Shown one piece after another: positions 13,786 through 49,548 of a stretch of DNA of 64,000 nucleotides (position 1 is the stretch's first letter; each line of letters begins with the position of its first letter). The stretch is taken from assembly GCF_900637305.1 (NCBI RefSeq), contig NZ_LR134365.1:1171501-1235500 (forward strand), given 5' to 3'. The DNA comes from Cardiobacterium hominis. GTDB taxonomy: Bacteria; Pseudomonadota; Gammaproteobacteria; Cardiobacteriales; Cardiobacteriaceae. The position numbers and the translations under genes were made by a program. The notes below the pieces were generated by a model. It had not been told where the DNA came from. It saw nothing but the letters and a program-made list of their open reading frames with translations, and did not search any database.

Positions 13786-13796
13786 GGCCGACAGCT

Positions 13797-16716: not shown

Positions 16717-16950
16717 ATGAAATTCGTCTGGTTTTTGTTGTTGGTGGCGGGGCTGTGGGTTTGGCGCGATTGGCAACGGGTGCGGCGGGTACGCGAGCGG
16801 CTGCAGCGGCGGGCGGCGGCGGAAGCGGCGTTCGAGCGGCTGGTGTTTGCGCTGGAGTGTCAGCTTGCCAACGGCGAGATTGACGAGGCGCGTTTTCGTA
16901 TGCTGCGTGATGAGGCGTTTCGCCGTTTGCAGGAGGCGGTGGGGGAGTAG
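16717..16950 (+). CDS. small membrane protein with SHOCT-like C-terminus
   Basis: A 77-residue protein. AAGGAGG lies five bases before the ATG, the strongest ribosome-binding site in this area; a GTG one codon earlier is less well spaced. Residues 2-17 form one hydrophobic span, followed by a basic stretch (RVRRVRERLQRR) and a short helical tail, LANGEIDEARFRMLRDEAF, that resembles a SHOCT domain. The function is unknown. It shares a 17-base divergent interval with pbpC and ends in its own terminator. Confidence 0.7.
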   Translation: MKFVWFLLLVAGLWVWRDWQRVRRVRERLQRRAAAEAAFERLVFALECQLANGEIDEARFRMLRDEAFRRLQEAVGE

Positions 16951-16992
16951 GCGCGGTATGGCGTCTTGTTTTTTAGGAATGTGGATGTGAAA

Positions 16993-17022
16993 CGGGCGGT
17001 GATTAACCGCCCTGTTTTTTTT
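16993..17022 (+). terminator. terminator after the small membrane protein gene
   Basis: GGGCGGT and ACCGCCC pair around GATTA, followed by nine bases that are nearly all T. Confidence 0.8.
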
Positions 17023-17034
17023 GTGTCTGCTGGT

Positions 17035-18270
17035 TCAGGAGGCGCTGACTGCTGCGGTTTTGCGTTGGTCGGCGAGGTCGGCGGCGGCGGTAAAGAGGAC
17101 GTCTGAGGAGGAGTTGAGCGCGGTTTCGGCGCTGTCCTGGATGATGCCGATGAGGACGCCAATGGCGATGACTTGCGCCGAGGTGTCGCCGTCAATGCCG
17201 AGCAGCGAGCAGGCCATCGGGATGAGCATCAGCGAACCGCCGGGGACGCCCGATGCGCCTGCCGCGCCTAATGTCGCGAGGAAGCAGAGCAGGAGCGCAT
17301 TCAGCGGGTGTACCGGCACGTGGATGGTGTTCGCCGCGGCAAGCGAGAGGACGGCGATGGTGATGGCCGCGCCCGCCATGTTGATGGTCGCGCCGAGCGG
17401 GATGCTGATGCTGTAGGTTTCTTCGCGGATGTGCAGTTCTTCGCAGAGGTCGAGGTTGATCGGGATGTTGGCGGCGGAGCTGCGGGTGAAGAAGGCGGGG
17501 ATGCCGCTTTGGGTGAGACAGCGCCAGACGAGCGGGTAGGGGTTTTGGCGCAGGATGGCCCAGACCATCAGCGGGTTCACGATGAGCGCAACCACCGCCA
17601 TGCTGCCGAGGAGGACGGCGATGAGACGGGCGTAGGTGTCAAAGGTGGAGAAGCCGGTGGTGGCGACGGTCGCGGTCACGAGGCCGAAGACGCCGTAGGG
17701 CGCGATGCGGATGACGAGCGAGACGACGTAGTGGATGACGCGCGCGGCATCGTCCAGCACGGTTTTGGTGACGCTGTTGGCGTGGCGCAGGGCAACGCCG
17801 GCAAGAATCGCCCAGGCGAGGATGCCGATGTAGTTGCCGTTGGTGGCGGCGCTGATGGGGTTGTCGGTGATTTTGAAGAGCAGGGTGGTCAGCACTTCTT
17901 TCAGGCTTTCCGGCGCGGTGACGGCTTCGGGGTTGCCGGTCAGGTGCAGGGTGGTGGGGTACCAGGTGCTGGCAAGCACGGCGACGGCGGCCGCGGCAAA
18001 GGTGCCGATGACGTAAAGCACGATGATGGTTTTCAGACCGCGCGCCTGCCCCTGCTGGTGGCGGGAGATGGCGTGGGTGATGAGGACGAAGACGAGGATG
18101 GGCGCGACGGCGCGCAGCGCCTTGGTGAAGAAGTCGCCGAGAATCTGGAAGTATTCGGCGGCCTGCGGCAGTTCGGCGACGAAAAGGATGCGGCCGATGA
18201 GGATGCCGAGCAGCATCGCCAAGAGGATTTGGCGGACGAGCGATTTGCCGAGCCAGCGGAGGAATTGCAT
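17035..18270 (-). CDS. sstT: serine/threonine:sodium symporter
   Basis: Inner-membrane DAACS-family carrier that imports serine and threonine with sodium. The 411-residue protein (E. coli 414) opens LRWLGKSLVRQILLAMLLGI. It has the serine-rich hairpin FFTRSSAANIPINLDLC, the sodium-site region GATINMAGAAITIAVLSLAA, the second hairpin AAGASGVPGGSLMLIP and the late QDSAETALNSSSDV motif. GGTCCT-type sequence precedes the start. It appears to be a single-gene unit. Confidence 0.95.
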   Translation of the reverse strand: MQFLRWLGKSLVRQILLAMLLGILIGRILFVAELPQAAEYFQILGDFFTKALRAVAPILVFVLITHAISRHQQGQARGLKTIIVLYVIGTFAAAAVAVLASTWYPTTLHLTGNPEAVTAPESLKEVLTTLLFKITDNPISAATNGNYIGILAWAILAGVALRHANSVTKTVLDDAARVIHYVVSLVIRIAPYGVFGLVTATVATTGFSTFDTYARLIAVLLGSMAVVALIVNPLMVWAILRQNPYPLVWRCLTQSGIPAFFTRSSAANIPINLDLCEELHIREETYSISIPLGATINMAGAAITIAVLSLAAANTIHVPVHPLNALLLCFLATLGAAGASGVPGGSLMLIPMACSLLGIDGDTSAQVIAIGVLIGIIQDSAETALNSSSDVLFTAAADLADQRKTAAVSAS

Positions 18271-18370
18271 GGGAGGTCCTTGTGGTGGTTGAAAGGGCGG
18301 CTATCTTACTGCCGCACCTGTATTTTCGGCAATCATCTGGCGAGAATAAAAGGGCTGGCGGGGCGGCATG

Positions 18371-18396
18371 AAAAAGCCCCGGCAGTTCCGGGGCTT
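18371..18396 (-). terminator. terminator of the small periplasmic protein gene
   Basis: On the minus strand, AGCCCCGG and CCGGGGCT pair around a five-base loop, followed by TTTTT. Confidence 0.85.
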
Positions 18397-18411
18397 TGGC
18401 AGGGCAGTGCC

Positions 18412-18804
18412 TTATTTGCGCGAATCAAGGAAGATGACTTTGATATTGCGCTTGCCGTCTTCATCGTCCACGTCGTATCCGATGCTGTACAGCGGCACGT
18501 TGCCTTCGGCGTCCATCTTGTTGTATTTCAGCTCGGCGTGTTCCCCGTCCACTTCTTCCGTTTCCGGCTGCAAGCCTTGCTCTTTGGCCTTGGCCTGGAT
18601 AAAGGCGGCAATGTCGGCAACCTTGGCATCGGTGGCGACGGTGAAATCGATGCCGCCGGTGCCGTCGTCTTCGCCTTCCACGAAGGTTACTTTTTCCGGC
18701 AGGAAGACTTCGGCAGGGACGCTTTTCAGGTCTTTCAGCGGGGTGTCGGCGAAAGCGGCAACGGATACCAGGGTCATGGCAGCGGCGAGCAGGGATTTTT
18801 TCAT
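18412..18804 (-). CDS. small exported protein of unknown function
   Basis: A 130-residue protein with a clear signal peptide (MKKSLLAAAMTLVSVAAFA, cleavage before DTP) and an acidic mature part rich in Asp and Glu (EGEDDGTGG, DVDDEDGKR). I chose MKKSLL, since GGAG lies seven bases upstream. The mature part may be a small alpha/beta domain (KVADIAAFIQAKAKEQGLQP). I do not recognise the family. It is a single-gene unit with its own terminator. Confidence 0.75.
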   Translation of the reverse strand: MKKSLLAAAMTLVSVAAFADTPLKDLKSVPAEVFLPEKVTFVEGEDDGTGGIDFTVATDAKVADIAAFIQAKAKEQGLQPETEEVDGEHAELKYNKMDAEGNVPLYSIGYDVDDEDGKRNIKVIFLDSRK

Positions 18805-18969
18805 GTAAGACTCCAATCTGTTTGGGGATAAAGGAAGGCGCCAAAGCGCGGGCGCATCCTACTATGATTCGCAGGCGCTTTCCAAGACGGTTTGGCATTT
18901 TCCTGCGCGCCCCGCGTGCAAGCGCCGCAGACTTACCCTTAATCAAGAAAGTAGGCGCGGGTTCGGTTA

Positions 18970-18975
18970 TATAAT
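18970..18975 (+). promoter_or_regulatory. -10 element for the SCO1/thioredoxin/propeller operon
   Basis: TATAAT lies about 31 bases before the first start codon. No convincing -35 is seen. Confidence 0.4.
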
Positions 18976-19005
18976 GCTAACGCCCTTCACAACCGGAGAC
19001 CCTCC

Positions 19006-35283: not shown

Positions 35284-36654
35284 TCAGGAGGCGATGGCTT
35301 CTGCCAGCGGCAGGTGCTTCTGCCCGCGGCCGACGCCGATGTAGTGGAAGCCGAGGTGGTAGAGGTCTTCCGGGTGGTACTGGTTGCGGCCGTCGATGAT
35401 GAGCAGGTGGCGCATTTTGCGGCGCAGGCGCTCGAAGTCCGGCTCGCGGAATTCCGGCCATTCGGTGACGAGCATCAGCGCGTCGGCGGCGGCGGTCGCG
35501 CTGTAGGCATCGTCGGTGAAGGTGAGGTCGCCGCGTTGTTGGGCGGGTTGGGGCAGGGCGGCGCGGGCGGTGTGCTGGGCGACGGGGTCGTAGGCGCGCA
35601 CTTTGGCGCCCGCTTCAAGCAGCGCTTCGATGAGGTCGATGCTCGGCGCTTCGCGCATGTCGTCGGTGCCGGGTTTGAAGGCCAGTCCCCAGACGGCGAT
35701 GGTTTTGCCTTTGAGGTTGTCGCCCAGTTCGGCGCGCAGTTTTTGGTAGAGGCGGTTTTTTTGGTGGCGGTTGCGGGTTTCGACGGCGTGCAGGACGTGC
35801 GGTTCGTAGCCTGTGCTTTCGGCCATGCTGACCAGTGCGCGCACGTCTTTGGGGAAGCAGGAGCCGCCATAGCCCGCGCCGGGGTGGATAAAGCGCGGGC
35901 CGATGCGCGGGTCGCTGCCGATGCCAAGACGGACGTTTTCGACGTCCACGCCGAGGTGTTCGCAGATGCCCGCGATTTCGTTCATGAAGGAGATGCGGGT
36001 GGCGAGCATGGCGTTGGCGGCGTATTTGGTCATTTCGGCGTCGCGCACGTTCATGGCGATGAGGCGCGCGCCTTGTGCGGTGAGCGGGGCGTAGAGCGCC
36101 TGCATTTGCGCGTGCGCGGCTTCGTTGTCGGCGCCGATGATGATGCGGTCGGGGTACATGAAGTCGCGGATGGCAACGCCTTCTTTGAGGAATTCGGGGT
36201 TGGAGACGACGTCGTAGGCGATGTTTTTGCCGCGCGCGGCGAGCGCTTCGGCGATGACGGCGCGCACTTTTTCGGCGGTGCCGACGGGGACGGTGGATTT
36301 GTTGATGATGATGGCCGGGTGTTCGAGGTTTTCGCCGATTTGCCGGGCGACGGCGAGGACGTGGCGGAGGTCTGCCGAGCCGTCTTCATCCGGCGGGGTG
36401 CCGACGGCGATGCAGTAGATGTGCGCGTCGTCCATTGCTTCGTGCAGGCAGGTGGTGAAGTTGAGGCGGCCGCTCGCGTGGTTTTTTTCGACGATGGTGT
36501 CAAGGCCGGGTTCGTAGATGGGCAGGATGCCATTTTTGAGGTTGTCGATTTTTTGCGGGCAGATGTCCACGCAGGTGACGTGGTGGCCGATGTCGGCGAA
36601 GCAGCTGCCTGCGACGAGGCCGACGTATCCGGTGCCGATTACTACTACGTTCAT
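35284..36654 (-). CDS. ugd: UDP-glucose 6-dehydrogenase
   Basis: Oxidises UDP-glucose to UDP-glucuronate with two NAD, a precursor for capsule, LPS or lipid A sugars. The 456-residue protein has the NAD motif VIGTGYVGLVAGSCFADIG, the KSTVPVGTAEKV segment, the catalytic Cys in GYGGSCFPKD (about residue 260) and the second Rossmann half (IAVWGLAFKPGTDDMREAPS). It appears to be a single-gene unit; the glycan cluster four kilobases away could use its product, but that link is only positional. Confidence 0.96.
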   Translation of the reverse strand: MNVVVIGTGYVGLVAGSCFADIGHHVTCVDICPQKIDNLKNGILPIYEPGLDTIVEKNHASGRLNFTTCLHEAMDDAHIYCIAVGTPPDEDGSADLRHVLAVARQIGENLEHPAIIINKSTVPVGTAEKVRAVIAEALAARGKNIAYDVVSNPEFLKEGVAIRDFMYPDRIIIGADNEAAHAQMQALYAPLTAQGARLIAMNVRDAEMTKYAANAMLATRISFMNEIAGICEHLGVDVENVRLGIGSDPRIGPRFIHPGAGYGGSCFPKDVRALVSMAESTGYEPHVLHAVETRNRHQKNRLYQKLRAELGDNLKGKTIAVWGLAFKPGTDDMREAPSIDLIEALLEAGAKVRAYDPVAQHTARAALPQPAQQRGDLTFTDDAYSATAAADALMLVTEWPEFREPDFERLRRKMRHLLIIDGRNQYHPEDLYHLGFHYIGVGRGQKHLPLAEAIAS

Positions 36655-36920: not shown

Positions 36921-38240
36921 TCAACACGGCAGGCGCAGGGTGATTTGCAGGCCGCCGAGGGCGCTGCGGCCGAGTTCGAGGCTGCCGTCGTAGGTTTCGG
37001 CGAGGTCGGCGGCGATGGGGATGCCAAGGCCGTTGCCGGCGGTGCTTTGGTCGAAGCGTTCGCCGCGGCGGGGGACGCGGGCGATTTGTTCGTCGGTGAG
37101 GCCGGGGCCGTCGTCTTCGATGGTGATTTGGATGTGGCCGCGTTTGGCATCGGCAAAGTGGCGCGCTTCGGTGCGGACGCGGCTGGCCGCCCATTTGCCC
37201 GCGTTGTCGAGCAGGTTGCCGAGCATTTCTTCGAGGTCGGTTTGTTCGGCGCGCAGGTGCAGGTCGCCGTCGGTGTGCAGTTGCCAGTCAAGGTTTCGCG
37301 CGGCGTGCAGGCGGCGCATGAGGGCGGTGAGTTGGGCGAGGCTTGCCGCGAGGTCGATGCGGCGCATGTCGCCCGCGCCGCTGCCCGCGCGGGCCAGGTG
37401 GCGCTCGATGAGGCGGTTCATGTTGTCGATGTGTTGGCGGGTGTGTTCGTTGTGCGCTTCGCTGCCGAGCAGGGCGAGTGGTTTTTTCAGGGCGTGGCTG
37501 AGGTCGGCGGCGTGGCCGCGGGCGCGGGCGACGATGCGCGCGTTGCGCTCCAGCATGTCGTCGATTTCGCGCGCCAGCGGGTCGAGGTCGGGGCCGTAGC
37601 CGGTGCCGACGCGGGTTTGTTCGCCGCTGTGGATGGCACGCAGGGCGTGGTGCAGGCGGCGCAGCGGGGTGAGGCCGAGGTGGATTTGCAGCCACAGCGA
37701 GAGGAGCAGGGTGATGATCATGCCCATCAGCATGAGGATGAGGATGCTGTCGAGGCGGCTGAGTTCGGTGTCGGTCGCTTGTGCCGGGCCGTAGGTGTGC
37801 AGGGTGATGGTGCGCCCGCCGAGGGTTTGTTCGCGTTTGATGCCGAGCAGCGGCTCGCCGGTCGGGCCGGTCAGGCGGTAGAGGGCGGGGTCGCGGCTGA
37901 TGCGGGTGGCGTTTTCGGGGTTGAGGCTGCTGTCCCAGAGGGAGCGCGAGTGTTTGTGGTTTTGGCCGTCGTCGAGTTGCCAGTACCAGCCGGAGAAGAT
38001 GGTGCGGTATTCTTCGGGGGCGAGTGCCGGGTCGTGGTAGATGTGGCCGCTGTCGCCCGCGCGCAGGCTGCTCGCGAGGCGGTCGGCGCGTTCGTTCAGG
38101 GTCGCCGCCATGCTGCGCAGGATGGTGTTGTGCAGGCGGTCGCGCAGCAGGTAGCCGCCGCCCGCCATCAGGGCGAGGGTGGTGAGGATGCCAAGGATGA
38201 GCAGGCGCTGCGAGAGGCCGAGGTTTTCGCGCAGGGTCAT
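36921..38240 (-). CDS. PhoQ-like sensor histidine kinase
   Basis: A 439-residue inner-membrane kinase: spans near 12-32 and 165-185 enclose a periplasmic sensor of about 130 residues, then HAMP, a PhoQ-type H box HAADLSHALKKPLALL (His near 248), N box EEMLGNLLDNAGKWA, and G boxes EDDGPGLTDEQ and GNGLGIPIAADLAE. The sensor is not strongly acidic, so magnesium sensing as in PhoQ is uncertain. Its start overlaps the regulator gene by four bases. Confidence 0.92.
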   Translation of the reverse strand: MTLRENLGLSQRLLILGILTTLALMAGGGYLLRDRLHNTILRSMAATLNERADRLASSLRAGDSGHIYHDPALAPEEYRTIFSGWYWQLDDGQNHKHSRSLWDSSLNPENATRISRDPALYRLTGPTGEPLLGIKREQTLGGRTITLHTYGPAQATDTELSRLDSILILMLMGMIITLLLSLWLQIHLGLTPLRRLHHALRAIHSGEQTRVGTGYGPDLDPLAREIDDMLERNARIVARARGHAADLSHALKKPLALLGSEAHNEHTRQHIDNMNRLIERHLARAGSGAGDMRRIDLAASLAQLTALMRRLHAARNLDWQLHTDGDLHLRAEQTDLEEMLGNLLDNAGKWAASRVRTEARHFADAKRGHIQITIEDDGPGLTDEQIARVPRRGERFDQSTAGNGLGIPIAADLAETYDGSLELGRSALGGLQITLRLPC

Positions 38241-38914
38241 GTGTCGTCCTTCGGGGTTTCGGCGGCGAGCATGAAGCCGCGGCCGCGGATGGTGTGCAGG
38301 AGCGGTACGCCCAGTTTGCGGCGGATGCGGCTGATGAGGACGTCCAGCGTGTTGGAGTCGGGGTCGCTGTCGCGCGCATAGACGTGTTCGAGGATTTCGC
38401 CACGGCTGACGACGGTGCCCGGCTGGTGCATGAGGTAGGCGAGGATGCGTTCTTCTTGCGCGGTGAGGGTGAGGCGGCGGCCGTCCAGGTGGAAGCGCGC
38501 TTGCAGGGTGTCGTAGCTCAGGCTGCCGACGTGCAGGGTGGTGTCGGCGTGGCCGCGGCTACGGCGTAGCAGGGCGCGCAGGCGCAGCACGACTTCTTCG
38601 TGCAGGAAGGGTTTGGTGAGGTAGTCGTCCGCGCCCGCGTTGAAGCCGGCGAGTTTGTCGCTCCAGCGGCTGCGCCCGGTGAGGATGAGGACGGGGTAGG
38701 TCTGGCCTTGTTCGCGCCAGTGGGTGAGCAGGCTGATGCCGTCCATGCCAGGCAGGCCGAGGTCAAGTACGGCGGCGTCGTAGGTTTCGGTGCTGCCGAG
38801 GAAGGCGGCTTCGTTGCCGTCGTGCGCGGTTTCGGCAATCATCCCCGCTTCTTGCAGGACGTTCGCGAGGCTTTGCGCCAGCTCGCGGTCGTCTTCGACG
38901 ATGAGGATTCGCAT
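38237..38914 (-). CDS. OmpR/PhoP-family response regulator
   Basis: A 225-residue regulator with an N-terminal receiver (acidic pair ED, phospho-acceptor Asp near 51 in AAVLDLGLPG, Lys in YLTKPF) and a C-terminal winged helix (LTAQEERILAYLMHQPG, then SNTLDVLISRIRRKLG). The order with the kinase matches PhoPQ/QseBC-like systems. The start shares one base with the stop of the PepSY gene upstream. Targets are unknown; autoregulation of the operon is common for such systems. Confidence 0.93.
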   Translation of the reverse strand: MRILIVEDDRELAQSLANVLQEAGMIAETAHDGNEAAFLGSTETYDAAVLDLGLPGMDGISLLTHWREQGQTYPVLILTGRSRWSDKLAGFNAGADDYLTKPFLHEEVVLRLRALLRRSRGHADTTLHVGSLSYDTLQARFHLDGRRLTLTAQEERILAYLMHQPGTVVSRGEILEHVYARDSDPDSNTLDVLISRIRRKLGVPLLHTIRGRGFMLAAETPKDDT

Positions 38915-39603
38915 CAGCGCACCTCGATTTCGTCTTCGCTCAGCGGGCGGCCGCTGAAGGGGTCAAGCGAGATTTCGGTCAGGGTGCCGTCGTCGAGTTG
39001 CAGGTCGATTTCGTAGAAGGGGCGGGCGTTGCGATCATATTTGAGTTCCACTTCCAGTACGTGTCCGGGGTGGTTTTTTTGTAGCGCGTCCAGCAGGTCG
39101 GCCAGCGGTTTCATCCCGGCGGGCAGGTGGTCAAATTCGGCGACGGCTTCGCCGTTTTGTGCATCAACAAAGACGTCGTGACTGCGCCCGGCGTCGTCCA
39201 TGATGCGGATTTGGTAGAAGTAGCGCTCTTGGTGGCGGCGCAGGTCGAGGTCAACGACGCGCCCCGGCTGTTGTGCCAGCGCCTGGCGCAGCAGCTCTGC
39301 CGCGGGCAGGAGTCGCAGCGGTGCTTCCGGCGCGACTTCTTCGCCGGTCATGGCGTCAATGTGGATTTCCTGCCGCTCGCCGCCGACGGAAAGCAGTTTG
39401 ACTTCGTAAATGTTGCGACCGCTGCGGTTGCGGTCCAGCTCCACATCCAGCACGCGCCCCGGATAGCGCGCCTGCACCGCGGCAAGGATTTCAGCGAGCG
39501 GCTTGAAGCGCCCGGCCTGCACGGCTTGGCGCGCCGTGTCCTGGTCGGCGGTGAAGGCGGCCAGCAAGACACTGGCGGGAAGGAGGAGGAAAAATCGTTT
39601 CAT
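38914..39603 (-). CDS. exported protein with three PepSY-like units
   Basis: A 229-residue protein with a signal peptide (MKRFFLLLPASVLLAAFT) and three similar units, each with a helix then strands of the pattern GRVLDVELDRNRSGRNIYEV (ending IDAMTG, VDAQNG or LDPFSG). These are PepSY-type domains, often found in periplasmic inhibitors or sensors. AGGA lies seven bases before this ATG; a start two codons earlier is possible. As first gene of the operon, ahead of a regulator and kinase, it may modulate the sensor. Confidence 0.85.
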   Translation of the reverse strand: MKRFFLLLPASVLLAAFTADQDTARQAVQAGRFKPLAEILAAVQARYPGRVLDVELDRNRSGRNIYEVKLLSVGGERQEIHIDAMTGEEVAPEAPLRLLPAAELLRQALAQQPGRVVDLDLRRHQERYFYQIRIMDDAGRSHDVFVDAQNGEAVAEFDHLPAGMKPLADLLDALQKNHPGHVLEVELKYDRNARPFYEIDLQLDDGTLTEISLDPFSGRPLSEDEIEVR

Positions 39604-39711
39604 GGGCATATCCTGACAGAAGGCGTTTGAACGAAACGTGAACCGCCCTGTCAAAGACCGTTCACGAAGATTTTGCGATAATCCGCCGCACCATAAACCA
39701 GACCCGCTTTC

Positions 39712-40854
39712 ATGAACAACGCCCCGCGCATCGCCCTCTATTCACACGACACCATGGGACTCGGCCACATCCGCCGTACCTCGCTCCTCGCCCGCGCCCT
39801 GCGCCGCCCGCCGCTCAATGCGCACGTACTGCTCCTCTCCGGCATCCGCGAATCCGGCGCCTACCCGCTGCCGGACGGCATCGACAGCATCACCCTGCCC
39901 GCCTACCGCAAACGCGGCGACGGCAGCTACGGCGCCCGCGCGCTGGGCATCCCGCTCGATGACCTCATCGCCCTGCGCAGCCAGACACTTGCCGCCGCGC
40001 TGGACGCCTTCGCGCCCGACCTCCTCATCGTGGATAACGTCGCCCGCGGCGCGCTCGGCGAACTGGACGCAAGCCTCGCCCGGCAACGCGCGCGCGGTTG
40101 CCGCATCGTCCTCGGCCTGCGCGACATCATCGACGAACCCGCAGCCGTCGCCCGCCAATGGCAAAAACTGCGCACCCTCGACACCATCCGCGACTACTAC
40201 GACGCCGTCTGGATATACGGCGACGCCCGCCTCTACGACACCGTCGCCGCCTACGGCCTCGCCGCCGCGGACAAACCCATTACCTACCTCGGCTACCCCG
40301 ACCCGCTCCAGCGTGCAGAAACCAGCCCCGCCTCCGACAACGATGCCCCCTACGCCCTCTGCCTCCTCGGTGGCGGGCAGGACGGCTACGCCCTCGCCGA
40401 AGCCTTCGCCCGCACCACCCTGCCCGACGGCTGGCGCGCCATCCTGCTGACCGGGGCGATGATGCCCGCCGCCGAACGCGCCCAACTCGCCGCCATCCTC
40501 GCCGACCGCCCCGACTACCAACTGCTCGAATTCACCCCCGAACCGCTGGCGCTGATGCGCGGCGCGCGCGCCATCATCGCCATGAGCGGCTACAACACCA
40601 CCCTCGAACTGCTCGCGCTCAACGCCCCCATGCTGCTCGTGCCGCGCATCAAACCGCGGCGCGAACAATGGCTGCGCGCCGTGCGCCTTGCCGAACTCGG
40701 CCTTGCCGACTGCCTGCACCCGGACGAACTCAGCCCCGCCCGCCTCAGCGCCTGGTTGGCAGACGCCCGCCCGCGCAAAACCGCCCGCGACCGGCTCGAC
40801 TTCAACGGCCTGGAACACATCAACCGCGAAACCCTCGCCCTGCTCACACCATAA
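39712..40854 (+). CDS. MurG-like (GT28-type) glycosyltransferase
   Basis: A 380-residue GT-B protein. The N-terminal half has the glycine loop SHDTMGLGHIRRTSLLARAL; the C-terminal half has CLLGGGQDGYALAEAFA and MSGYNTTLELLALNAPMLLV, like the nucleotide-sugar site of MurG. Acceptor and donor are unknown. It resembles the COG4671-type predicted glycosyltransferases. It is the first gene of the glycan cluster, 11 bases before the next glycosyltransferase. GATAAT with an upstream TGC (39677-39682) may be its extended -10. Confidence 0.82.
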   Translation: MNNAPRIALYSHDTMGLGHIRRTSLLARALRRPPLNAHVLLLSGIRESGAYPLPDGIDSITLPAYRKRGDGSYGARALGIPLDDLIALRSQTLAAALDAFAPDLLIVDNVARGALGELDASLARQRARGCRIVLGLRDIIDEPAAVARQWQKLRTLDTIRDYYDAVWIYGDARLYDTVAAYGLAAADKPITYLGYPDPLQRAETSPASDNDAPYALCLLGGGQDGYALAEAFARTTLPDGWRAILLTGAMMPAAERAQLAAILADRPDYQLLEFTPEPLALMRGARAIIAMSGYNTTLELLALNAPMLLVPRIKPRREQWLRAVRLAELGLADCLHPDELSPARLSAWLADARPRKTARDRLDFNGLEHINRETLALLTP

Positions 40855-40865
40855 AAGGAACGACC

Positions 40866-42071
40866 ATGACCGACGCCCCCATCGCCTACATCCTCAAACG
40901 CTACCCGCGCTTCTCCGAAACCTTCGTCGTCAACGAAATCCTCGCCCACGAAGCCGCCGGACAAGCCATCGAAATCTACGCCCTCGGCCCCGTACAAGAA
41001 ACCCACTTCCAGGAAGCCATCGCCCGCGTGCGTGCGCCGGTGCGCCGCATCCGCCACCAATACCACGACACCGAACTCTACTGGCAACTGCTCACCAAAG
41101 CCCACGCCACCCTGCCCGCCTTCGACGCCAACGCCGCGCTTGCCGAAAACCACAGCGCCGCCACCATTGGCCAGGCGGCAGTACTGGCGCTCAAAATCCA
41201 CGAACGCGGCATCCGCCACCTGCACGCCCACTTCGGCACCCAGGCGGCGACCATCGCCCGCCTCGCCGCGCGCTTTGCCGCCGTCACCTACAGCATCACC
41301 GCACACGCCAAAGACATCTACCACGAATACAGCGAACCGGTGAACCTCGCCCGCAAAATCGCCGACGCCGCCTTCACCATCACCGTCTCCGACTACAACC
41401 TCGCCCACCTGCGCGAACAATACCCCGCTGAAGCGCCCGTGTACCGCATCTACAACGGACTCGACCTCGAACAATTCCCCTACCACGCGCCCGAAAACCG
41501 CCCGCCGCACCTCCTCGCCGTCGGCCGCCTCGTCGAAAAAAAAGGCTTCCCCGACCTCATAGACGCCATCGCCACCCTGCGCGAACGCGGCATAAACTGC
41601 ACCTGCGACATCATCGGCGACGGTAACCAGCGCGAGACACTCGCCGCACACATCGCCCGCTTACAACTTGCCGACCGCGTGCGCCTCCTCGGCAACCGCA
41701 GCCAGGCAGAAGTCAAAAACCACATCCGGCAGGCGGCGATGCTCATCGCCCCCAGCATCATCAGCGCTGACGGCGACCGCGACGGCCTGCCGACCATCCT
41801 CGTCGAAGCCATGGCGCTCGGCACCCCGTGCATCAGCACAAACATCGTCGGCATCCCCGAACTCGTGCGCGACGGCGACACCGGCCTGCTCGCCCCGCCC
41901 AACGACCCGCCCGCACTCGCCGACACCATCGCCCGCCTGCTCAACGACCCGGCACTCGCCGTGCGCCTCGCGACCAACGCCCGCGCCCTCATCGAACGTG
42001 ACTACAACATCCACGCCAACACCGCCCAACTACGCGAACACATCCGCGCCAGCATCGCGGCGCAAAAATAA
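40866..42071 (+). CDS. GT4-family glycosyltransferase
   Basis: A 401-residue retaining glycosyltransferase of the GT-B fold: YILKRYPRFSETFVVNEI at the N-terminus, the LLAVGRLVEKKGFPDLIDAI strand-loop and the family's late EX7E region (DGLPTILVEAMALGTPCIST). The N-terminus resembles colanic-acid/exopolysaccharide transferases such as WcaL or AmsK. AAGGAA lies six bases before the ATG. The substrate is unknown. Confidence 0.88.
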   Translation: MTDAPIAYILKRYPRFSETFVVNEILAHEAAGQAIEIYALGPVQETHFQEAIARVRAPVRRIRHQYHDTELYWQLLTKAHATLPAFDANAALAENHSAATIGQAAVLALKIHERGIRHLHAHFGTQAATIARLAARFAAVTYSITAHAKDIYHEYSEPVNLARKIADAAFTITVSDYNLAHLREQYPAEAPVYRIYNGLDLEQFPYHAPENRPPHLLAVGRLVEKKGFPDLIDAIATLRERGINCTCDIIGDGNQRETLAAHIARLQLADRVRLLGNRSQAEVKNHIRQAAMLIAPSIISADGDRDGLPTILVEAMALGTPCISTNIVGIPELVRDGDTGLLAPPNDPPALADTIARLLNDPALAVRLATNARALIERDYNIHANTAQLREHIRASIAAQK

Positions 42072-42097
42072 AATACCGCCCTCTCCGCCAGCCAGCC

Positions 42098-42200
42098 CCC
42101 TCCCTCGCAGGACGCGTAGCGTCCGCAGCGGGGGAGGGCAGGGGAGGGGGGGGTGAAAATTTGCGAAGCGACAACCTTCCCAATATACATACCCCCCACC
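42098..42200. repeat. GC-rich palindrome with conserved flank, copy 2
   Basis: CCCTCCCTCGC (42098-42108) pairs with GCGGGGGAGGG (42128-42138), 10 of 11 plus one wobble, around a perfect inner stem GGACGC-GTA-GCGTCC. The flank at 42163-42200 (GCGAAGCGACAACC...CCCAATA) recurs at 45461-45495 beside copy 4. It fills the gap between the two GT4 genes. Confidence 0.7.
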
Positions 42201-42236
42201 CGCTACCGCGTATGTAAAACCAACAGCAAACCCGAC

Positions 42237-43391
42237 ATGAAAAAACACATCGCCTACCTCTGCGCCGACCCCGGCATCCCCGTCTATGGCAACAAAGGCG
42301 CGTCTATCCACGTACAAAACATCATCCGTGCCTTCATCCGCGCCGGACACCGCGTCACCCTCTTTGCCAACCGCATCGACGGCACCCCGCCGCCGGGACT
42401 CGAAACCGTCCACCTCGTGCCGCTGCCCGCGCCGCCCAAAGGCGACAACGAAACCCGCGCCCGCGCCATCCTTGCCGCGCACGACACCATCACCGCCGCC
42501 ATCGCCGCGCACGCCCCCTACGACCTCCTCTACGAACGCTACTCCCTCTGGAGTGACATCGGCATGCGCTACGCCGAAGCGGCGGACATCCCATCCGTCC
42601 TCGAAGTCAACGCGCCGCTCATCGACGAACAACGCACCCACCGCGAACTCGTCCTGCCCGCCGAAGCCGAAACCATCGCCAAGAGCGCCTTTTCCCGTGC
42701 CCGCGAACTCATCGCCGTCTCGCCCGGCGTCGCCGCCTACCTCAAAAACTGGCCGCACCGGCGCATCACCACCCTCGCCAACGGCGTTGAACCCCAAACC
42801 TTCGCCGCCGCCCTGCCCATCCGCGCCGCCCGCCGCGACGGAGAGACCCGCATCGGCTTCCTCGGCACCCTCAAACCCTGGCACGGCCTGCCGCTCCTGG
42901 TTGAAGCCTTCGCCCGCGTCCACGCCGAACACCCCACCGCGCGCCTGCACATCATCGGCGACGGCCCCGGCAGGGCAGACCTCGAAACCGACCTTGCCGC
43001 CCGCGGCCTCACTCCCTACGCCCACATCAGCGGCAGCATCGCCGCCGCCGACGTTCCCGCCGCCCTCGGCCAAATCGATATCGCCACCGCCCCCTACCCG
43101 GCGCAGGACAACTTCTACTTCTCGCCGCTGAAAATCTACGAATACCACGCCGCCGGACTACCCGTCATCACCAGCCGCGTCGGCCACCTCGCCGAAGTCG
43201 TGCACGACGGCGAAGACGGCCTGCTCGTGCCGCCGGACGACCCACAAGCACTCGCCGACGCCATCCTCTCCCTCGCCCGCAACCCCGCGCACCGCACCCA
43301 CCTCGGCGACGCCGGCCGCATCCGCGTCGCCCGCGAACACAGCTGGGAAAGCGTCGCCGCAAAAATCCTCGCGCTGGCGGAAGAAACCTGA
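42237..43391 (+). CDS. GT4-family glycosyltransferase (second)
   Basis: A 384-residue GT-B protein: AYLCADPGIPVYGNKGASIH at the N-terminus, IGFLGTLKPWHGLPLLVEAF, IIGDGPGRADLE, and the EX7E region with SPLKIYEYHAAGLPVITS. The N-terminal glycine-rich loop and GASIHV are like those of GT4 enzymes in polysaccharide clusters. The repeat-containing gap before it could separate expression from the first two genes, but no terminator is seen. Confidence 0.88.
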   Translation: MKKHIAYLCADPGIPVYGNKGASIHVQNIIRAFIRAGHRVTLFANRIDGTPPPGLETVHLVPLPAPPKGDNETRARAILAAHDTITAAIAAHAPYDLLYERYSLWSDIGMRYAEAADIPSVLEVNAPLIDEQRTHRELVLPAEAETIAKSAFSRARELIAVSPGVAAYLKNWPHRRITTLANGVEPQTFAAALPIRAARRDGETRIGFLGTLKPWHGLPLLVEAFARVHAEHPTARLHIIGDGPGRADLETDLAARGLTPYAHISGSIAAADVPAALGQIDIATAPYPAQDNFYFSPLKIYEYHAAGLPVITSRVGHLAEVVHDGEDGLLVPPDDPQALADAILSLARNPAHRTHLGDAGRIRVAREHSWESVAAKILALAEET

Positions 43392-43410
43392 CACCCGCCA
43401 TCCCAAACAC

Positions 43411-43444
43411 CCCACCCCCTGTGGGTGAGGGGTAGGGGTGGGGT
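43411..43444. repeat. GC-rich palindrome, copy 3
   Basis: CCCCACCCC (43411-43419) pairs perfectly with GGGGTGGGG (43436-43444) across 16 bases, just after the second GT4 gene. It is a shorter member of the same dispersed family. Confidence 0.6.
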
Positions 43445-43525
43445 TACTGACAGCACGCACGCAGCCACATCGCCCTGCCCCAGCAGACCCTAAACACAAA
43501 CACCCTGCCCAACAACAAAAAAACC

Positions 43526-45322
43526 ATGACCCACACCCCCATCCGCCGCGTCCTGCACCGCTTCCGCCCCTACCTGCACGGCCAACTGCCGCTGCTCCTC
43601 GCCTCGCTCGCCGCCCTGCTCGGCATGACCCTGATGCGCCTCCTCGAGCCCTGGCCGCTCGCCTGGATCGTCGATAACCTCCTCAAAAACAAAACCCCAC
43701 CGCTCGGCCTCACCACCAACCAACTCATCTGGGCGAGCGCCCTCGCCGTCATCGCCTTCGCCGCCCTGCGCGCCCTGTGCGGCTACCTCTCCACCATCGG
43801 CTTTGCCCGCATCGGCACCCAAGTCCTGAGCCGCGTGCGCAACGACCTCTACAACCAACTCCTCACCCTGCCGCTCTCCTACCACCAAAAAATGCGCCCC
43901 GGCGACCTCACCCTGCGCCTGGTGAATGACGTCTCCCAACTCAAAGAAGTCACCGTCTCCGCCCTCCTGCCCATGCTCGCCAACATCTTCGTCCTTGCGG
44001 GCATGTTCGCCGTCATGCTCGCGCTGAACTGGCAACTGGCACTACTCTCCCTCATCCCGCTGCCCGTCATGTGGTACTCCGCCAAACACAGCAGCCGCCT
44101 CATCCACGAAGCCAGCCGCCGCACCCGCAGCCGCGAAGGCGCACTGGCTGCCACCGCATCCGAAAGCATGGCCGCCATCCGTACCGTCCAATCCCTCACC
44201 CTCGAAAACAAATTCCGCCACCTCTTTGAAGGCAGCGACGACAAAGCCATGAACGCCGACATGAGCACCAAACGCCTCTCCGCCGGCCTCGAACGCACCA
44301 TCGACCTCCTCGTCGCCTGCGCCACCGCGCTCGTCCTCTGGCAGGGCGCGCGCCAAGTCCTCGCCGGCCAACTGAGCGCGGGCGACCTGCTCGTCTTCAT
44401 CTCCTACCTCAAAAACAGCATGCGCCCCGTGCGCGAATACGCCAAATACGCCGGCCGCCTCTCCAAAGCGCTGGCCTCCGCCGAACGCATCGCCGACATC
44501 CTCGACGAAACCCCGGAAATCACCGACGACCCCTACAGCCGCCCGGCGCCGCCACTGCGCGGCCGCATCAACCTGCGCAACCTCCACTTCCACTACCCCG
44601 GCAACCCCAAAAAAACCTTCGACGGCCTCGACCTCGAAATCGCCGCGGGCGAACACATCGCCATCGTCGGCCCCTCCGGCATCGGCAAATCCACCCTGGC
44701 GGCGCTACTCCTGCGCCTCTACCAACCACAACAAGGCCGCATCGAAATCGACGGGCACGACATCCGCCGCTTCCAACTCGCCAGCCTGCGCGCACAAATC
44801 GGCCTCCTGCCACAAGACGCGCTCCTCTTTGCGACCAGCATCCGCGACAACCTCACCTGCGCCGCCGGACGCGCCGTCAGCGAACGCGAAACCATCGCTG
44901 CCGCCAAACTCGCCAACGCGCACGACTTCATCATGGCGCAGCCCGACGGCTACAACACCCAAATCGGCGAACGCGGCGCGACCCTCTCCGGCGGCCAGCG
45001 CCAGCGCCTGGCCATCGCGCGCGTCGCCCTGCGCCGCTGCCCCATCCTCATCCTCGACGAACCCACCACCGGCCTGGACCGCCACAGCGAAACCGTCGTC
45101 CGCCACGCCATCGAACGCCTCATCGCCAACCGCACCGCACTAATGATTACCCACGACCTTGACCTCGCGGCGCGTGCCGACCGCATCCTCTACATCCAGG
45201 ACGGCAAAATCGGCGAAAGCGGCACCCACCAAGAACTCCTCGCCAAAGGCGGGCTCTACGCCGCGCTGTGGCGCATGCACCGCCAGGCCATGCAACCAGA
45301 GCCCGACGCGCGCAGCGCCTGA
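43526..45322 (+). CDS. half-size ABC exporter (MsbA/PglK-like)
   Basis: A 598-residue transporter: six membrane spans (about 20-300) fused to an ATPase with Walker A GPSGIGKST (about 381), Q loop GLLPQDALLF, signature LSGGQRQRLAIARV (about 486), Walker B ILILDEPTTGLD and H loop THD. Half-size exporters work as homodimers and move lipids, lipid-linked glycans or drugs outward. With three glycosyltransferases ahead and two kinase-like genes behind, a glycolipid flippase is the most likely role; the substrate is inferred, not shown. Confidence 0.92.
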   Translation: MTHTPIRRVLHRFRPYLHGQLPLLLASLAALLGMTLMRLLEPWPLAWIVDNLLKNKTPPLGLTTNQLIWASALAVIAFAALRALCGYLSTIGFARIGTQVLSRVRNDLYNQLLTLPLSYHQKMRPGDLTLRLVNDVSQLKEVTVSALLPMLANIFVLAGMFAVMLALNWQLALLSLIPLPVMWYSAKHSSRLIHEASRRTRSREGALAATASESMAAIRTVQSLTLENKFRHLFEGSDDKAMNADMSTKRLSAGLERTIDLLVACATALVLWQGARQVLAGQLSAGDLLVFISYLKNSMRPVREYAKYAGRLSKALASAERIADILDETPEITDDPYSRPAPPLRGRINLRNLHFHYPGNPKKTFDGLDLEIAAGEHIAIVGPSGIGKSTLAALLLRLYQPQQGRIEIDGHDIRRFQLASLRAQIGLLPQDALLFATSIRDNLTCAAGRAVSERETIAAAKLANAHDFIMAQPDGYNTQIGERGATLSGGQRQRLAIARVALRRCPILILDEPTTGLDRHSETVVRHAIERLIANRTALMITHDLDLAARADRILYIQDGKIGESGTHQELLAKGGLYAALWRMHRQAMQPEPDARSA

Positions 45323-45380
45323 CCTTGCTGCCACCGCTAATCTGCCCCTCCCTAGGGCTGTTTGCATTTCAGCGGATAAG

Positions 45381-45495
45381 CCCCTCTCCCTCTGGGACAA
45401 GCATTGCTCGTCCGTAGGACGAGAGAGGGGTTGGGGTGAGGGCAGCAAATATGAAAAACCGCGTAGCGACAAACCCCAATAACATCCACCCCAAC
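45381..45495. repeat. GC-rich palindrome with conserved flank, copy 4
   Basis: CCCCTCTC (45381-45388) pairs with GAGAGGGG (45423-45430); inside, GGACAAGCA faces TGCTCGTCC. The flank GCGTAGCGACAAACC...CCAATAACAT (45461-45495) matches that of copy 2. It lies between the ABC exporter and the first kinase-like gene. Confidence 0.7.
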
Positions 45496-45512
45496 AACCC
45501 ACAAACCAAACC

Positions 45513-46640
45513 ATGCACCCCGCCGAACAAGCCCTCATCGCCCGCGACCCCGCGCTCCCCGGCCTCGCCCTGCTGCTGGACGACCGCGCCCTCAGCGCCG
45601 CGCTCACCCCGCACCTGACCGGACACAGCATCGCCCGCGTCACCTACCTGCGCTACAAACCGCAGACCCACTGCCTCGCCGCGCTGCGCCTTGACGACCA
45701 CAGCGGCAACACACAAACCCTCTGGGCCAAAGCCCTGCCCGCCGCCAGCCACGACTGGCAATGGCAAAGCGCCCGCCTCGACAAACGCCACGGCGGCCAG
45801 CGCCTCACCCTGCCCGCGGCACACCTCCTCCTCGCCAGCCCCGAACACGACCGCCGCCTGCGCGTCGCCCTGCCCGCAGGCGCCACCATCCTGCGCTACA
45901 AACCCGAACGCCGCCTCGTCGCCCGCCACCACGACCAACTCCTGCGCTACACCACCGCCGCCGACTACCCCGCGACCCTGCGCGCCATCCAAATCGGCGC
46001 GACTTGCGGCGGCGCGCCGCTCACCGCCTGCGACGGCGCACAACAGCGCATCCAGACCGCCTGGCTCGAAGGCGAAACCCTCACCACACCCGACCCCGTC
46101 CAGCTGCGACAAACCGGCGCACAGCTTGCCGCCCTGCACCGTGCCGCCGTACCAGCGGAACTGCCCGTGCGTCCTGACGAAAACCAGGCACTCGCACAAA
46201 CCCTCGCCACCATTCACACCATCAGCCCGGCGCATAGCGAACGCCTACGCGCCCTCATCAAGCGCACCCAAGACGGCCTTGCTCGCGTGCGCAGCGCGCC
46301 CTGTCACAACCACGGCGACCCCTCGCCCGACCAAACCCTGCGCCGCCCGGACGGCACATACTGCCTCATCGACTGGGACAACACCTGCCTCGCCCCGCCC
46401 GAAAGCGACCTCGGCACCTACCTCGGCAAAACCCACGCGCGCCACCCCGATACCCGCCTGCAAGAGCTCGCCGCCGCGCTGCTGCACGACTACGACGCCC
46501 CCTACGACCGCGCCGCCCTCTACCATTACACCGCCGCCGCCCTCATCCGCCTCCTGCCCGAAGGCTTCCGCCAGCGCCGCCCCGACTGGCCGCAGCACCT
46601 CGAACGCCTCCTCGAAAGCGCCGAAAACCTGGAACTATGA
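45513..46640 (+). CDS. APH-fold phosphotransferase (first of a pair)
   Basis: A 375-residue protein of the aminoglycoside-phosphotransferase/choline-kinase fold. The catalytic loop reads NHGDPSPDQTL: the catalytic Asp is present, but the usual Asn five residues later is Gln. The metal-binding segment is LIDWDNTCLAPPESDLG. A Gln at that place is also known in maltokinases, so a sugar or glycan substrate is plausible and drug resistance unlikely. It overlaps the second kinase-like gene by four bases. Confidence 0.82.
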   Translation: MHPAEQALIARDPALPGLALLLDDRALSAALTPHLTGHSIARVTYLRYKPQTHCLAALRLDDHSGNTQTLWAKALPAASHDWQWQSARLDKRHGGQRLTLPAAHLLLASPEHDRRLRVALPAGATILRYKPERRLVARHHDQLLRYTTAADYPATLRAIQIGATCGGAPLTACDGAQQRIQTAWLEGETLTTPDPVQLRQTGAQLAALHRAAVPAELPVRPDENQALAQTLATIHTISPAHSERLRALIKRTQDGLARVRSAPCHNHGDPSPDQTLRRPDGTYCLIDWDNTCLAPPESDLGTYLGKTHARHPDTRLQELAAALLHDYDAPYDRAALYHYTAAALIRLLPEGFRQRRPDWPQHLERLLESAENLEL

Positions 46641-47581
46641 CCCACGAACTCTCCCCCGCGACCAACCCCGCCTACATACAAACCGCGCTGCGCGAAGCCC
46701 TGCAGCAGCCTGACCTCAAACTGCGCGACCTCGAACTACTGCGCCACAAACCCGGCCGCCGCGCGCTCATCGCCTACACCATCGCGCGCCCCGGACAGCC
46801 GCTGCAAACCCTGCTCGGCAAACAGCGCGTCAAAGGCGTGGACAAACACGGCTACCACATCCAGCGCGCCCTGTGGCAACAAGGCTTCGACCTGCCCGGC
46901 CTCGCCGTACCCGAAGCGCTCGCCCTCCTCCCCGACGCCCGCCTCTGGCTCCAGCGCAAAGCCGCAGGCGAACCCGCCACCCGCTACCTCACGCCCGACA
47001 GCCCGCCCGCCCTGTGGGCGCGCATCGGTGCGGCAATAGCCAGCCTGCACCGCACCAATATCACGACGGAGCGCCGCTGGAACATCGCCGACGAACTCGC
47101 ACTCTTGCACGACCGCCTCAACAAAGCCGCCGCGCTACACCCCCTGCTGACAGAACGCATCACCGCACTCCTGCCCGCGCTGGACGCCCTCGGCGCGACA
47201 CTTGCCGACCGCCCCGCCTGTGGCATCCACCGCGACTGCTACCCCGACCAAATCCTCGTGGCGGACGCGGGCGCGCACCTCACCTGGCTGGACCTTGACC
47301 TCTACTGCCACGGCGACCCGGCGCTGGACGTCGGCAACTTCCTCGCGCACATGACCGAGCACGCGCTACGCCACTACGGCGACGCGGCCGCCCTTGCCGC
47401 CCAAGAAAACGCGCTGCAACAACACTACCAACAAGAAACCGGCACCGCGCCGGAAGCCATCGCCGCCTGGACGACCCTGGCGCTTGCCCGCCACATCTAC
47501 CTCAGCACCCAATTCCCCGAACGGCACCACACCACCGCGCCGCTCCTCGCCCTCTGCGAACAACGCCTGCAAAAACCCTAA
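46637..47581 (+). CDS. APH-fold phosphotransferase (second of a pair)
   Basis: A 314-residue APH-fold protein with IHRDCYPDQILV as catalytic loop (again Gln in place of Asn) and WLDLDLYCHGDPALDVGNFL as metal site and following helix. The shared PDQ motif makes the two neighbours one subfamily, though overall they differ and probably have distinct acceptors. No nucleotide-sugar or antibiotic function is evident. It is the last gene of the uniform GC-rich part of the glycan cluster. Confidence 0.82.
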   Translation: MTHELSPATNPAYIQTALREALQQPDLKLRDLELLRHKPGRRALIAYTIARPGQPLQTLLGKQRVKGVDKHGYHIQRALWQQGFDLPGLAVPEALALLPDARLWLQRKAAGEPATRYLTPDSPPALWARIGAAIASLHRTNITTERRWNIADELALLHDRLNKAAALHPLLTERITALLPALDALGATLADRPACGIHRDCYPDQILVADAGAHLTWLDLDLYCHGDPALDVGNFLAHMTEHALRHYGDAAALAAQENALQQHYQQETGTAPEAIAAWTTLALARHIYLSTQFPERHHTTAPLLALCEQRLQKP

Positions 47582-47691: not shown

Positions 47692-49548
47692 ATGAGCACT
47701 ATCACCCTCTACACCGTCTATCACAAAGCTGCGCACATTCTGCAAAACCCTTACATCACCCCAATACAAGTGGGCGGTGGCGACGATATTGCCGGCATCC
47801 ATTACCGCGACAACCAAGGCGACAATATCGCAGCAAAAAACGACAGCTATTGCGAACTCACCGCGCAATACTGGATGTGGAAACAAGATCACGAATCCGA
47901 TTACATCGGCTTGATGCACTACCGCCGCTTCTTCGATTTCAATACCACTGCCCAGCGCAAAGCGAATGTATACGGCATTATCGAAGAACCTGCCTTTAAT
48001 TTGGATTTCAGCAAAAAATACGGACTCACTCCCGAAAACCTGCGCGCACAAATCGAAGGTTACGACATTATCCTGCCCCATCCTTGGGATGTCCGTCCGG
48101 CAGGGTGGGACAACTTGCGCCATAACTACACCGCTTCACCCCACCACCACGAGCGCGACCTGAATATCACCCGCGACGTCATTGCGGCACATTACCCCGA
48201 TTACCTATCCAGTTTTGACGAAGTCATGCAGGCGCGTAACGGCTATTTCACCAATATGTTTATCATGCGTCGCGCATTATTCGCCGAATACTCTGCCTGG
48301 CTGTTTGCCGTTTTGGCTGAAGTAGAAAAACGCGCGGATATCTCCGCCTATGACACGCAAGAAAAACGTGTCTTTGGCTATCTCTCCGAGCGCCTGCTTA
48401 ATGTCTGGTTGAAAAAGAAGATGGCCGAACAGCCCCAACTAAAAATCAATCACCTGCGCCGCGTCTTTATTTTTGATACGACGGCCAAATCCTGGTATGC
48501 CCAGCCTGTCCAAACCGATAAACCCGTAGTCAGCGTCGTTATCGCCTCCGATGACAACTACACCCCGCATTTGGGTGCGCTTATCTGCTCCATTCTCGAT
48601 CATTTCCCGGCCGATAAATACCTTGACCTGATTATCCTCGACGGGGGTATTTCTGCGCTGAACCGCAAATTATTGATGCGGCTATTGCCAACGCACGCCA
48701 ATATCCAGTTTCTCGAACTGAAAGACGAGTTTCAGCAATTGGCGACGCATATGCATTTCTCTCGCGCCACCTTTTACCGCCTGATTCTCGACAAACTCAT
48801 TCCGGGGCGGGATAAAGTGCTCTATATTGATTGTGACACCATCGTCCTGGATGACATCAGCACATTATTTGATACCCCGCTCGGGGATCATGCCATAGGC
48901 GCCGTATTTGACTACATCATGCACCATTTTTGCCTGAATGATGTGCTCTCCATTGATACTACCGGCAGCCTGCCTGCCAAACGCTATTTGCATGATTACG
49001 TCGGTCTGGAAGATGGCTGGCAACGCTATTTCCAGGCGGGCGTCATTTTGTTCAATATGGAAAAACTGCGCCGGCTCGATTTGTCGGAAGTCATGATTAG
49101 CGACTTGCTCAACAAACGTTATTGGTTCCTCGATCAGGATATTCTTAATAAATACTTCCTGGGGGATGTCGTCTATCTGGATCCGCGCTGGAATAGCGTC
49201 AACAGCGTACAAAATATTTATCAAGGATTGCCCGCTACCTATATTGCGGAATTGAAGACGACAGAAACTGACCCCAAGATTATTCATTACGCGGGATTTG
49301 AAACCAAACCCTGGAATAACCGCTATGCCGAATTGGCAGAATATTATTTCTACTATCTGCGGCAGACATTCTGGTATGAGCCCGTGATGTTCGCCCTGGA
49401 GCGGCGAGAGCAGGGTAACGGTACGACGTCAGCACCGCCTGGACGCGGCATTTTCTGGCGGATAGGTCAGAAGTGCTGGAAAATGATGCCACTATTTGCC
49501 CGGCGACGTTTGCACCGCGTCAAAGAATATTTGAAGCGGAAGTTGTGA
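47692..49548 (+). CDS. DUF4422 - GT8 fusion glycosyltransferase
   Basis: A 618-residue protein in two parts. Residues 1-270 are a DUF4422 domain (TLYTVYHKAAHI, then YIGLMHYRRFFDF), found in galactofuranose- and capsule-type transferases. Residues 280-600 are a GT8 domain with the metal-binding DxD in LYIDCDTIVLDD (about 378) and the LNKYFLGDVVYLD region, as in LPS glucosyl/galactosyltransferases. The basic C-terminus may bind the membrane. It has its own upstream interval with TATACT at 47632-47637 and is less GC-rich than the genes before it, so it may have been added later. Confidence 0.88.
   Translation: MSTITLYTVYHKAAHILQNPYITPIQVGGGDDIAGIHYRDNQGDNIAAKNDSYCELTAQYWMWKQDHESDYIGLMHYRRFFDFNTTAQRKANVYGIIEEPAFNLDFSKKYGLTPENLRAQIEGYDIILPHPWDVRPAGWDNLRHNYTASPHHHERDLNITRDVIAAHYPDYLSSFDEVMQARNGYFTNMFIMRRALFAEYSAWLFAVLAEVEKRADISAYDTQEKRVFGYLSERLLNVWLKKKMAEQPQLKINHLRRVFIFDTTAKSWYAQPVQTDKPVVSVVIASDDNYTPHLGALICSILDHFPADKYLDLIILDGGISALNRKLLMRLLPTHANIQFLELKDEFQQLATHMHFSRATFYRLILDKLIPGRDKVLYIDCDTIVLDDISTLFDTPLGDHAIGAVFDYIMHHFCLNDVLSIDTTGSLPAKRYLHDYVGLEDGWQRYFQAGVILFNMEKLRRLDLSEVMISDLLNKRYWFLDQDILNKYFLGDVVYLDPRWNSVNSVQNIYQGLPATYIAELKTTETDPKIIHYAGFETKPWNNRYAELAEYYFYYLRQTFWYEPVMFALERREQGNGTTSAPPGRGIFWRIGQKCWKMMPLFARRRLHRVKEYLKRKL

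What the first reader, a model, noticed from the sequence alone, without database searches (positions are those of the whole stretch)
39712..47581. Glycan cluster with three transferases, a half-size ABC exporter and two PDQ-type kinases
Six genes on one strand: a MurG-like GT, two GT4, an MsbA/PglK-like exporter and two APH-fold proteins. Both APH proteins keep the catalytic Asp (HGD, HRD) but share Gln where Asn is normal (PDQ), as in maltokinases. No polymerase, Wzx or Wzy is present. This suggests a short glycan or glycolipid that is built and phosphorylated inside and then flipped by the exporter. I do not know a described system with this set.
Basis: partly seen in the sequence, partly recalled or inferred. 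Interest (0 to 1): 0.75.

Follow-up and report, generated by a model that had tools for sequence, protein, structure and literature searches.

The report
Conserved glycan-export operon with paired kinases
Six neighbouring genes form a set that is kept in almost the same order in many bacterial phyla and one archaeon, probably a machine that builds, phosphorylates and exports an acidic sugar chain; I found no published description of it.

Summary
At 39712-47581 lie six same-strand genes: a GT28-type glycosyltransferase (A), two GT4 transferases (B, C), a half-size ABC exporter (D) and two APH-fold kinases (E, F) with intact catalytic motifs. E and F are fused in most beta- and gammaproteobacteria; F is alone in most cyanobacteria. 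Best reading: synthesis and export of a glucuronate-containing glycan by a route distinct from Wzx/Wzy, Wzm/Wzt and synthase systems, with kinases acting on the glycan or its primer. Substrate, chain length and lipid linkage are not shown. The window's genome has no detectable AlgE-like barrel, and the block was probably acquired horizontally; its closest relatives are in Lautropia. No open-access paper found describes this gene set.

The parts
39712..40854 (+). A: GT28-type (GT-B) glycosyltransferase, 380 aa
   Evidence: Pfam PF04101; many invariant columns in 25 homologs; AF2 model pLDDT 91, GT-B fold nearest to OleD/CalG-type enzymes
40866..42071 (+). B: GT4 glycosyltransferase, 401 aa (EpsE/WcaL-like)
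   Evidence: Pfam PF00534 135 bits; EPS_EpsE 202 bits, below its cut-off of 400
42237..43391 (+). C: GT4 glycosyltransferase, 384 aa (a GTG start at 42153 is also open)
   Evidence: Pfam PF13692, PF13439
43526..45322 (+). D: half-size ABC exporter, 598 aa
   Evidence: PF00664 + PF00005; MsbA_rel 439 bits and MsbA 432 bits, both below equivalog cut-offs
45513..46640 (+). E: APH-fold kinase 1, 375 aa, HGD..PDQ..IDWD
   Evidence: PF01636; family alignment: D269 in 37/37, Q274 in 34/37, D287 in 37/37 rows that cover the site
46637..47581 (+). F: APH-fold kinase 2, 314 aa, HRD..PDQ..LDLD; overlaps E by 4 bp (ATGA)
   Evidence: PF01636; D200, D219, D221 in 63/63, Q205 in 56/63 rows; AF2 pLDDT 95.7; APH/choline-kinase-like fold
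38914..39654 (-). PepSY-domain protein, divergent from A; linked accessory
   Evidence: PF03413, three repeats; same place in all four Lautropia loci, 46-51% identity
38237..38914 (-). OmpR/PmrA-type response regulator; linked regulator
   Evidence: PF00072 + PF00486; 74-76% to the regulator next to the operon in Lautropia; regulators beside the operon in many other loci
36921..38240 (-). sensor histidine kinase of that pair
   Evidence: PF02518; 50-54% to Lautropia
35284..36654 (-). UDP-glucose 6-dehydrogenase (TuaD type), likely supplier of UDP-glucuronate; the only match in this genome
   Evidence: NCBIfam TuaD 507 bits (cut-off 700), NDP-sugDHase over cut-off; single match in the genome; 65-69% to the linked copy in Lautropia

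Best explanation
A horizontally mobile, cross-phylum cassette that makes and exports an acidic (glucuronate-containing) cell-surface or secreted glycan. UDP-glucose dehydrogenase supplies UDP-GlcA. The transferases A, B and C assemble the glycan on the cytosolic side. The paired APH-fold kinases E and F phosphorylate the growing glycan or its primer (start unit or end cap). The half-size exporter D moves the product over the inner membrane. In most diderm relatives a beta-barrel (AlgE-like or OprB) then passes it over the outer membrane. A linked two-component system controls expression. Shown here by sequence: the gene set, its conserved order, intact active sites, the recurring barrel, dehydrogenase and regulator, and the fusion of E with F. 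Inferred: the glycan's acidity, the kinases' substrate, the order of phosphorylation and export, and whether the carrier is a lipid.
For: 58 of 58 loci with at least 8.5 kb downstream of A have B, C and D; 56 in order; 57 with a kinase. They span Pseudomonadota, Cyanobacteriota, Planctomycetota, Gemmatimonadota, Chloroflexota, Actinomycetota, Nitrospirota, Deferribacterota and the archaeon Methanoperedens; contigs from Acidobacteriota and Deinococcota end early but start the same way. Distances of A-D correlate, r 0.76-0.92. Kinase catalytic residues are near-invariant in E and F; Gln at the Mg site as in a GlcN kinase, where Q305 binds Mg (PMC6520443). E-F fused in about 20 loci. Barrel at the operon end: Alginate_exp in 16 loci plus 3 more, OprB in 18. 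E. coli plasmids carry the full set with barrel and dehydrogenase. Dehydrogenases of two distinct types are linked: Ugd type in Pasteurellaceae and E. coli, TuaD type in Lautropia, the window and a planctomycete. More distant A-B clusters sit near a polysaccharide lyase or an alginate-lyase-family gene.
Against: No biochemical or chemical data. No AlgE-like barrel was found in the window's genome, and Pasteurellaceae loci show none nearby, so outer-membrane passage is unexplained there. Most cyanobacteria have only F and the one fully covered planctomycete locus has no kinase, so neither kinase is strictly required. UGDH lies within 10 kb in only 9 of 80 loci. The 80 loci were chosen as the closest relatives of A; in a draw of 299 Pseudomonadota genomes no other genome had a close copy, only 31-37% relatives, mostly with another ABC protein and no kinase found.
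Confidence: 0.6

Rival explanations
1. One reading: A, B and C build a short glycolipid on a membrane lipid, E and F phosphorylate it, and D flips the phosphoglycolipid MsbA/PglK-style; it stays in the envelope.
For: D is closest to MsbA-like families and A shares the GT28 C-terminal domain with lipid-acting MurG. The window and Pasteurellaceae lack the barrel.
Against: The barrel at the operon end in about 37 relatives points to export out of the cell. A's modelled fold is nearer to OleD/CalG-type enzymes than to MurG. No lipid-modifying or priming gene is in the cassette.
Confidence: 0.25
2. E and F are ordinary sugar kinases that supply sugar phosphates for a nucleotide sugar; the glycan itself is not phosphorylated.
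For: The catalytic loops match sugar kinases such as GlcN kinase and maltokinase.
Against: No nucleotidyltransferase or mutase travels with the cassette among the conserved neighbours. Two kinases fused in tandem is unusual for salvage.
Confidence: 0.13
3. Drug resistance and efflux locus: APH enzymes inactivate drugs and D pumps them out.
For: Fold resemblance to aminoglycoside and macrolide kinases and of D to multidrug ABC exporters.
Against: Always tied to three glycosyltransferases and often to a polysaccharide-type barrel and UGDH. No NCBIfam resistance model is reached.
Confidence: 0.02

Closest known systems
ABC-transporter-dependent O-antigen/capsule systems with a terminal kinase (WbdA-D with Wzm/Wzt)
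   Same: Cytosolic GT4 assembly, a protein-kinase-like enzyme acting on the glycan, ATP-driven export (from general knowledge, not tested here)
   Different: Exporter is a single half-size exporter instead of Wzm plus Wzt; two APH-type kinases; AlgE/OprB barrel in relatives instead of Wza or Lpt
Synthase-dependent alginate secretion (AlgE barrel)
   Same: AlgE-family outer-membrane barrel in many beta/gammaproteobacterial copies; uronate precursor supply
   Different: No GT2 synthase among the cassette genes; exporter is of ABC type; no such barrel found in the window's genome
NdvA/ChvA cyclic glucan exporter and MsbA/PglK flippases
   Same: Half-size ABC exporter for a carbohydrate or glycolipid
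   Different: D stays below the curated cut-offs of all of these, and its neighbours differ
Maltokinase and glucosamine kinase (SjGlcNK)
   Same: Protein-kinase-like fold, HGDxxxxQ catalytic loop, DxD loop
   Different: No solved maltokinase or GlcN kinase matched by sequence; different gene context
Rhizobial GT28-GT4 clusters (S. meliloti pSymB, locus L085)
   Same: A-B pair, an ABC protein, UGDH within about 15 kb in 6 of 20 sampled genomes, a polysaccharide lyase nearby in S. meliloti
   Different: A only 31-37% identical and in a separate clade; about 905-aa ABC protein, extra GT28-like gene, no APH kinases found

Membership tests
Wzx/Wzy-dependent polysaccharide system | Wzx flippase, Wzy polymerase and a priming transferase in the cluster | tested here: not met
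   No such family among the six genes and close neighbours; priming enzyme only about 200 kb away
ABC-dependent (Wzm/Wzt, KpsMT) system | separate ABC-2 permease and nucleotide-binding subunit | tested here: not met
   D has ABC_membrane and ABC_tran in one chain
Synthase-dependent alginate-type system | GT2 synthase plus AlgE barrel | tested here: not met
   No GT2 synthase in the cassette; AlgE-like barrel present in relatives but not found in the window's genome
MsbA (lipid A flippase) | NCBIfam MsbA equivalog cut-off | tested here: not met
   432 bits against 602
PglK | NCBIfam PglK equivalog cut-off | tested here: not met
   177 bits against 1000
MurG | NCBIfam murG equivalog cut-off | tested here: not met
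   21.6 bits against 250.25
APH-fold small-molecule kinase superfamily | Pfam APH above cut-off, catalytic Asp, Mg-binding Asp, kinase fold | tested here: met
   for E and F; fold for F only
Maltokinase / GlcN kinase | sequence relation to the family | tested here: not met
   No solved maltokinase or GlcN kinase matched by phmmer (F) or by the F profile; fold resemblance only, 4u94 TMq 0.61
Maltokinase / GlcN kinase | Gln in the catalytic loop as Mg ligand | tested here: met
   E 34/37, F 56/63; compare Q305 of SjGlcNK
WbdD-type chain-terminating kinase | phosphorylation of the glycan's terminal sugar | not testable with these tools
   needs biochemistry

The most novel reading that the evidence does not exclude
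An undescribed class of glycan secretion machine, present in many bacterial phyla and an archaeon, in which a pair of APH-type kinases phosphorylates (primes or caps) a uronate glycan and thereby licenses its export by a half-size ABC exporter and a swappable outer-membrane barrel.
Probability: 0.35. Interest if true: 0.85.

Novelty: new variant of a known kind. Interest (0 to 1): 0.62.

Why it matters
Bacterial glycan export is usually sorted into Wzx/Wzy, Wzm/Wzt and synthase routes. A compact cassette kept in nearly fixed order from cyanobacteria to enterobacteria (including E. coli plasmids) and an archaeon, with conserved kinases as its oddest part, would be a further route. It poses a direct question: what do the kinases phosphorylate, and does D export only the phosphorylated form? 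The cassette also occurs in mucosal bacteria such as Aggregatibacter and Pasteurella.

Tried and rejected
Drug-resistance reading: rejected on context. LPS decoration as the general role: rejected because the cassette also occurs in an archaeon, an actinomycete and cyanobacteria. S. [quoted passage not shown] AlgE-like barrel in the window's own genome: searched twice, not found (the second query was a single Lautropia protein, a weak probe). The downstream DUF4422+GT8 gene (47692-49548) is not counted as a part: different base composition and not among the conserved neighbours. Promoter scan gave nothing above chance. Seven literature searches looked for the gene set, its families or its E. 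coli plasmid carriers and found no description; two others looked at APS and at kinase motifs. Subscription papers are not held, so a described member cannot be excluded. The conservation counts rest on 80 loci chosen by similarity to A; a draw not chosen that way showed that the close cassette is uncommon.

Full report
Observation. The HGD/HRD and PDQ motifs are read directly from the sequence. A is only weakly MurG-like, and D is MsbA-like rather than PglK-like. No flippase, polymerase or Wzm/Wzt gene lies in the cluster.

Conservation. A search for A in GTDB species genomes gave 204 relatives; the best 80 loci were kept with up to 10 kb on each side. Scanning them for the other window genes showed that all 58 loci with at least 8.5 kb downstream of A have B, C and D, 56 of them in the order A-B-C-D, and 57 have at least one of the two kinases. 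The two order exceptions are of the kind seen in gammaproteobacterial bins that read A-D-E-C-B-F. The loci come from ten bacterial phyla and from Candidatus Methanoperedens; for Acidobacteriota and Deinococcota the contigs end before the set is complete. Pairwise distances of A, B, C and D correlate (r 0.76-0.92), as expected if they travel together; shared taxonomy also contributes to this number.

Kinases. Three layouts occur: E and F as separate neighbours (window, Methanoperedens, several cyanobacteria, E. coli plasmids), E-F fused in one protein of about 780 aa (Lautropia, Lampropedia, Pasteurellaceae, most Enterobacterales, Paracoccus), and F alone (most cyanobacteria). The planctomycete locus with full coverage has neither. 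Because the window and the E. coli copy sit inside groups with the fused form, they may be secondary splits. The catalytic Asp and Mg-binding Asp are essentially invariant in both families; Gln stands at the Mg-ligand position in 34/37 E and 56/63 F rows. But F matches no solved maltokinase by sequence, and its confident model (pLDDT 95.7) is about equally distant from many APH-fold kinases.

In Proteobacteria the gene right after EF/F is a Pfam Alginate_exp barrel (16 loci, plus three more found by tblastn), in cyanobacteria an OprB barrel (18 loci). Two different barrel families in the same slot is good evidence that the product leaves the cell. UDP-glucose dehydrogenase is linked in Pasteurellaceae and E. 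coli plasmids (Ugd type) and, as a distant subtype, in Lautropia, the window and a planctomycete (TuaD type). In the window it is the only such gene found in the genome. E. coli plasmids carry A-B-C-D-E-F, alginate export protein and nucleotide sugar dehydrogenase as eight consecutive genes; 18 of 5426 complete E. coli genomes have it, all on plasmids. Histidine kinase and response regulator genes of different types lie near the operon in roughly a third of loci.

Origin in this genome. Only 1 of 12 genomes of the window's family has A. For A-D the nearest relatives are Lautropia, and the PepSY-regulator-kinase-UGDH block beside it is shared with Lautropia too. Horizontal acquisition as one block is the simplest reading; the direction is not shown.

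Wider family. In an even draw of 299 Pseudomonadota genomes, 23 others have an A relative; the 20 inspected are 31-37% identical and 19 of them keep an A-B pair. Most are a rhizobial type with a different, about 905-aa ABC protein and no kinase found, and six of the 20 have UGDH within about 15 kb. Two gammaproteobacteria have kinases and a barrel. A tree separates this group from the cassette. The S. meliloti copy lies beside a polysaccharide lyase, and a Manganitrophus plasmid copy beside an alginate-lyase-family gene and two phosphotransferases; both hint at an acidic polysaccharide.

Mechanism. The most likely scheme is UDP-GlcA supply, assembly by A-C, phosphorylation of primer or chain by E/F, export by D, and passage over the outer membrane by the barrel where present. 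Only the gene content, order, active-site conservation and linkage are shown. A sugar-salvage role of the kinases is less likely (0.13). Drug efflux is very unlikely.

Limits. Structures were predicted for A and F only. No paper found in the open-access library describes the set, but subscription papers are not held.

Noticed in passing
window 45340-45500 (between D and E): A dispersed repeat of about 100 bp fills most of the D-E gap; a search of the genome with this stretch gave 57 matching places. Other GC-rich, repeat-like spacers lie between B and C (42072-42236) and C and D (43392-43525), in an operon that is tightly packed in relatives.
   Followed up: partly
window 47692-49548, +: DUF4422 plus GT8 two-domain glycosyltransferase directly after the operon, in a stretch of lower GC (about 0.52 against 0.65); it occupies the slot where relatives have the AlgE-like barrel.
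   Followed up: partly
L082 (E. coli plasmid p1RM9088) 11998-22176: Complete eight-gene version including barrel and UGDH, at 99% or more identity in 18 of 5426 complete E. coli genomes, always on plasmids; in this plasmid it lies near F4-like fimbrial genes.
   Followed up: partly
L086 (Candidatus Manganitrophus plasmid) 9016-18999: Related cluster with GT28, GT4, alginate-lyase-family protein, two phosphotransferases and a second GT28-like transferase on a 34-kb plasmid.
   Followed up: no
L085 (S. meliloti pSymB) 323-16852: Rhizobial relative with adenylate/guanylate cyclase, polysaccharide lyase, an ABC importer, GT28, GT4, GT, a 903-aa ABC protein and a Crp/Fnr regulator: possibly a cyclic-nucleotide-controlled glycan system.
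   Followed up: no
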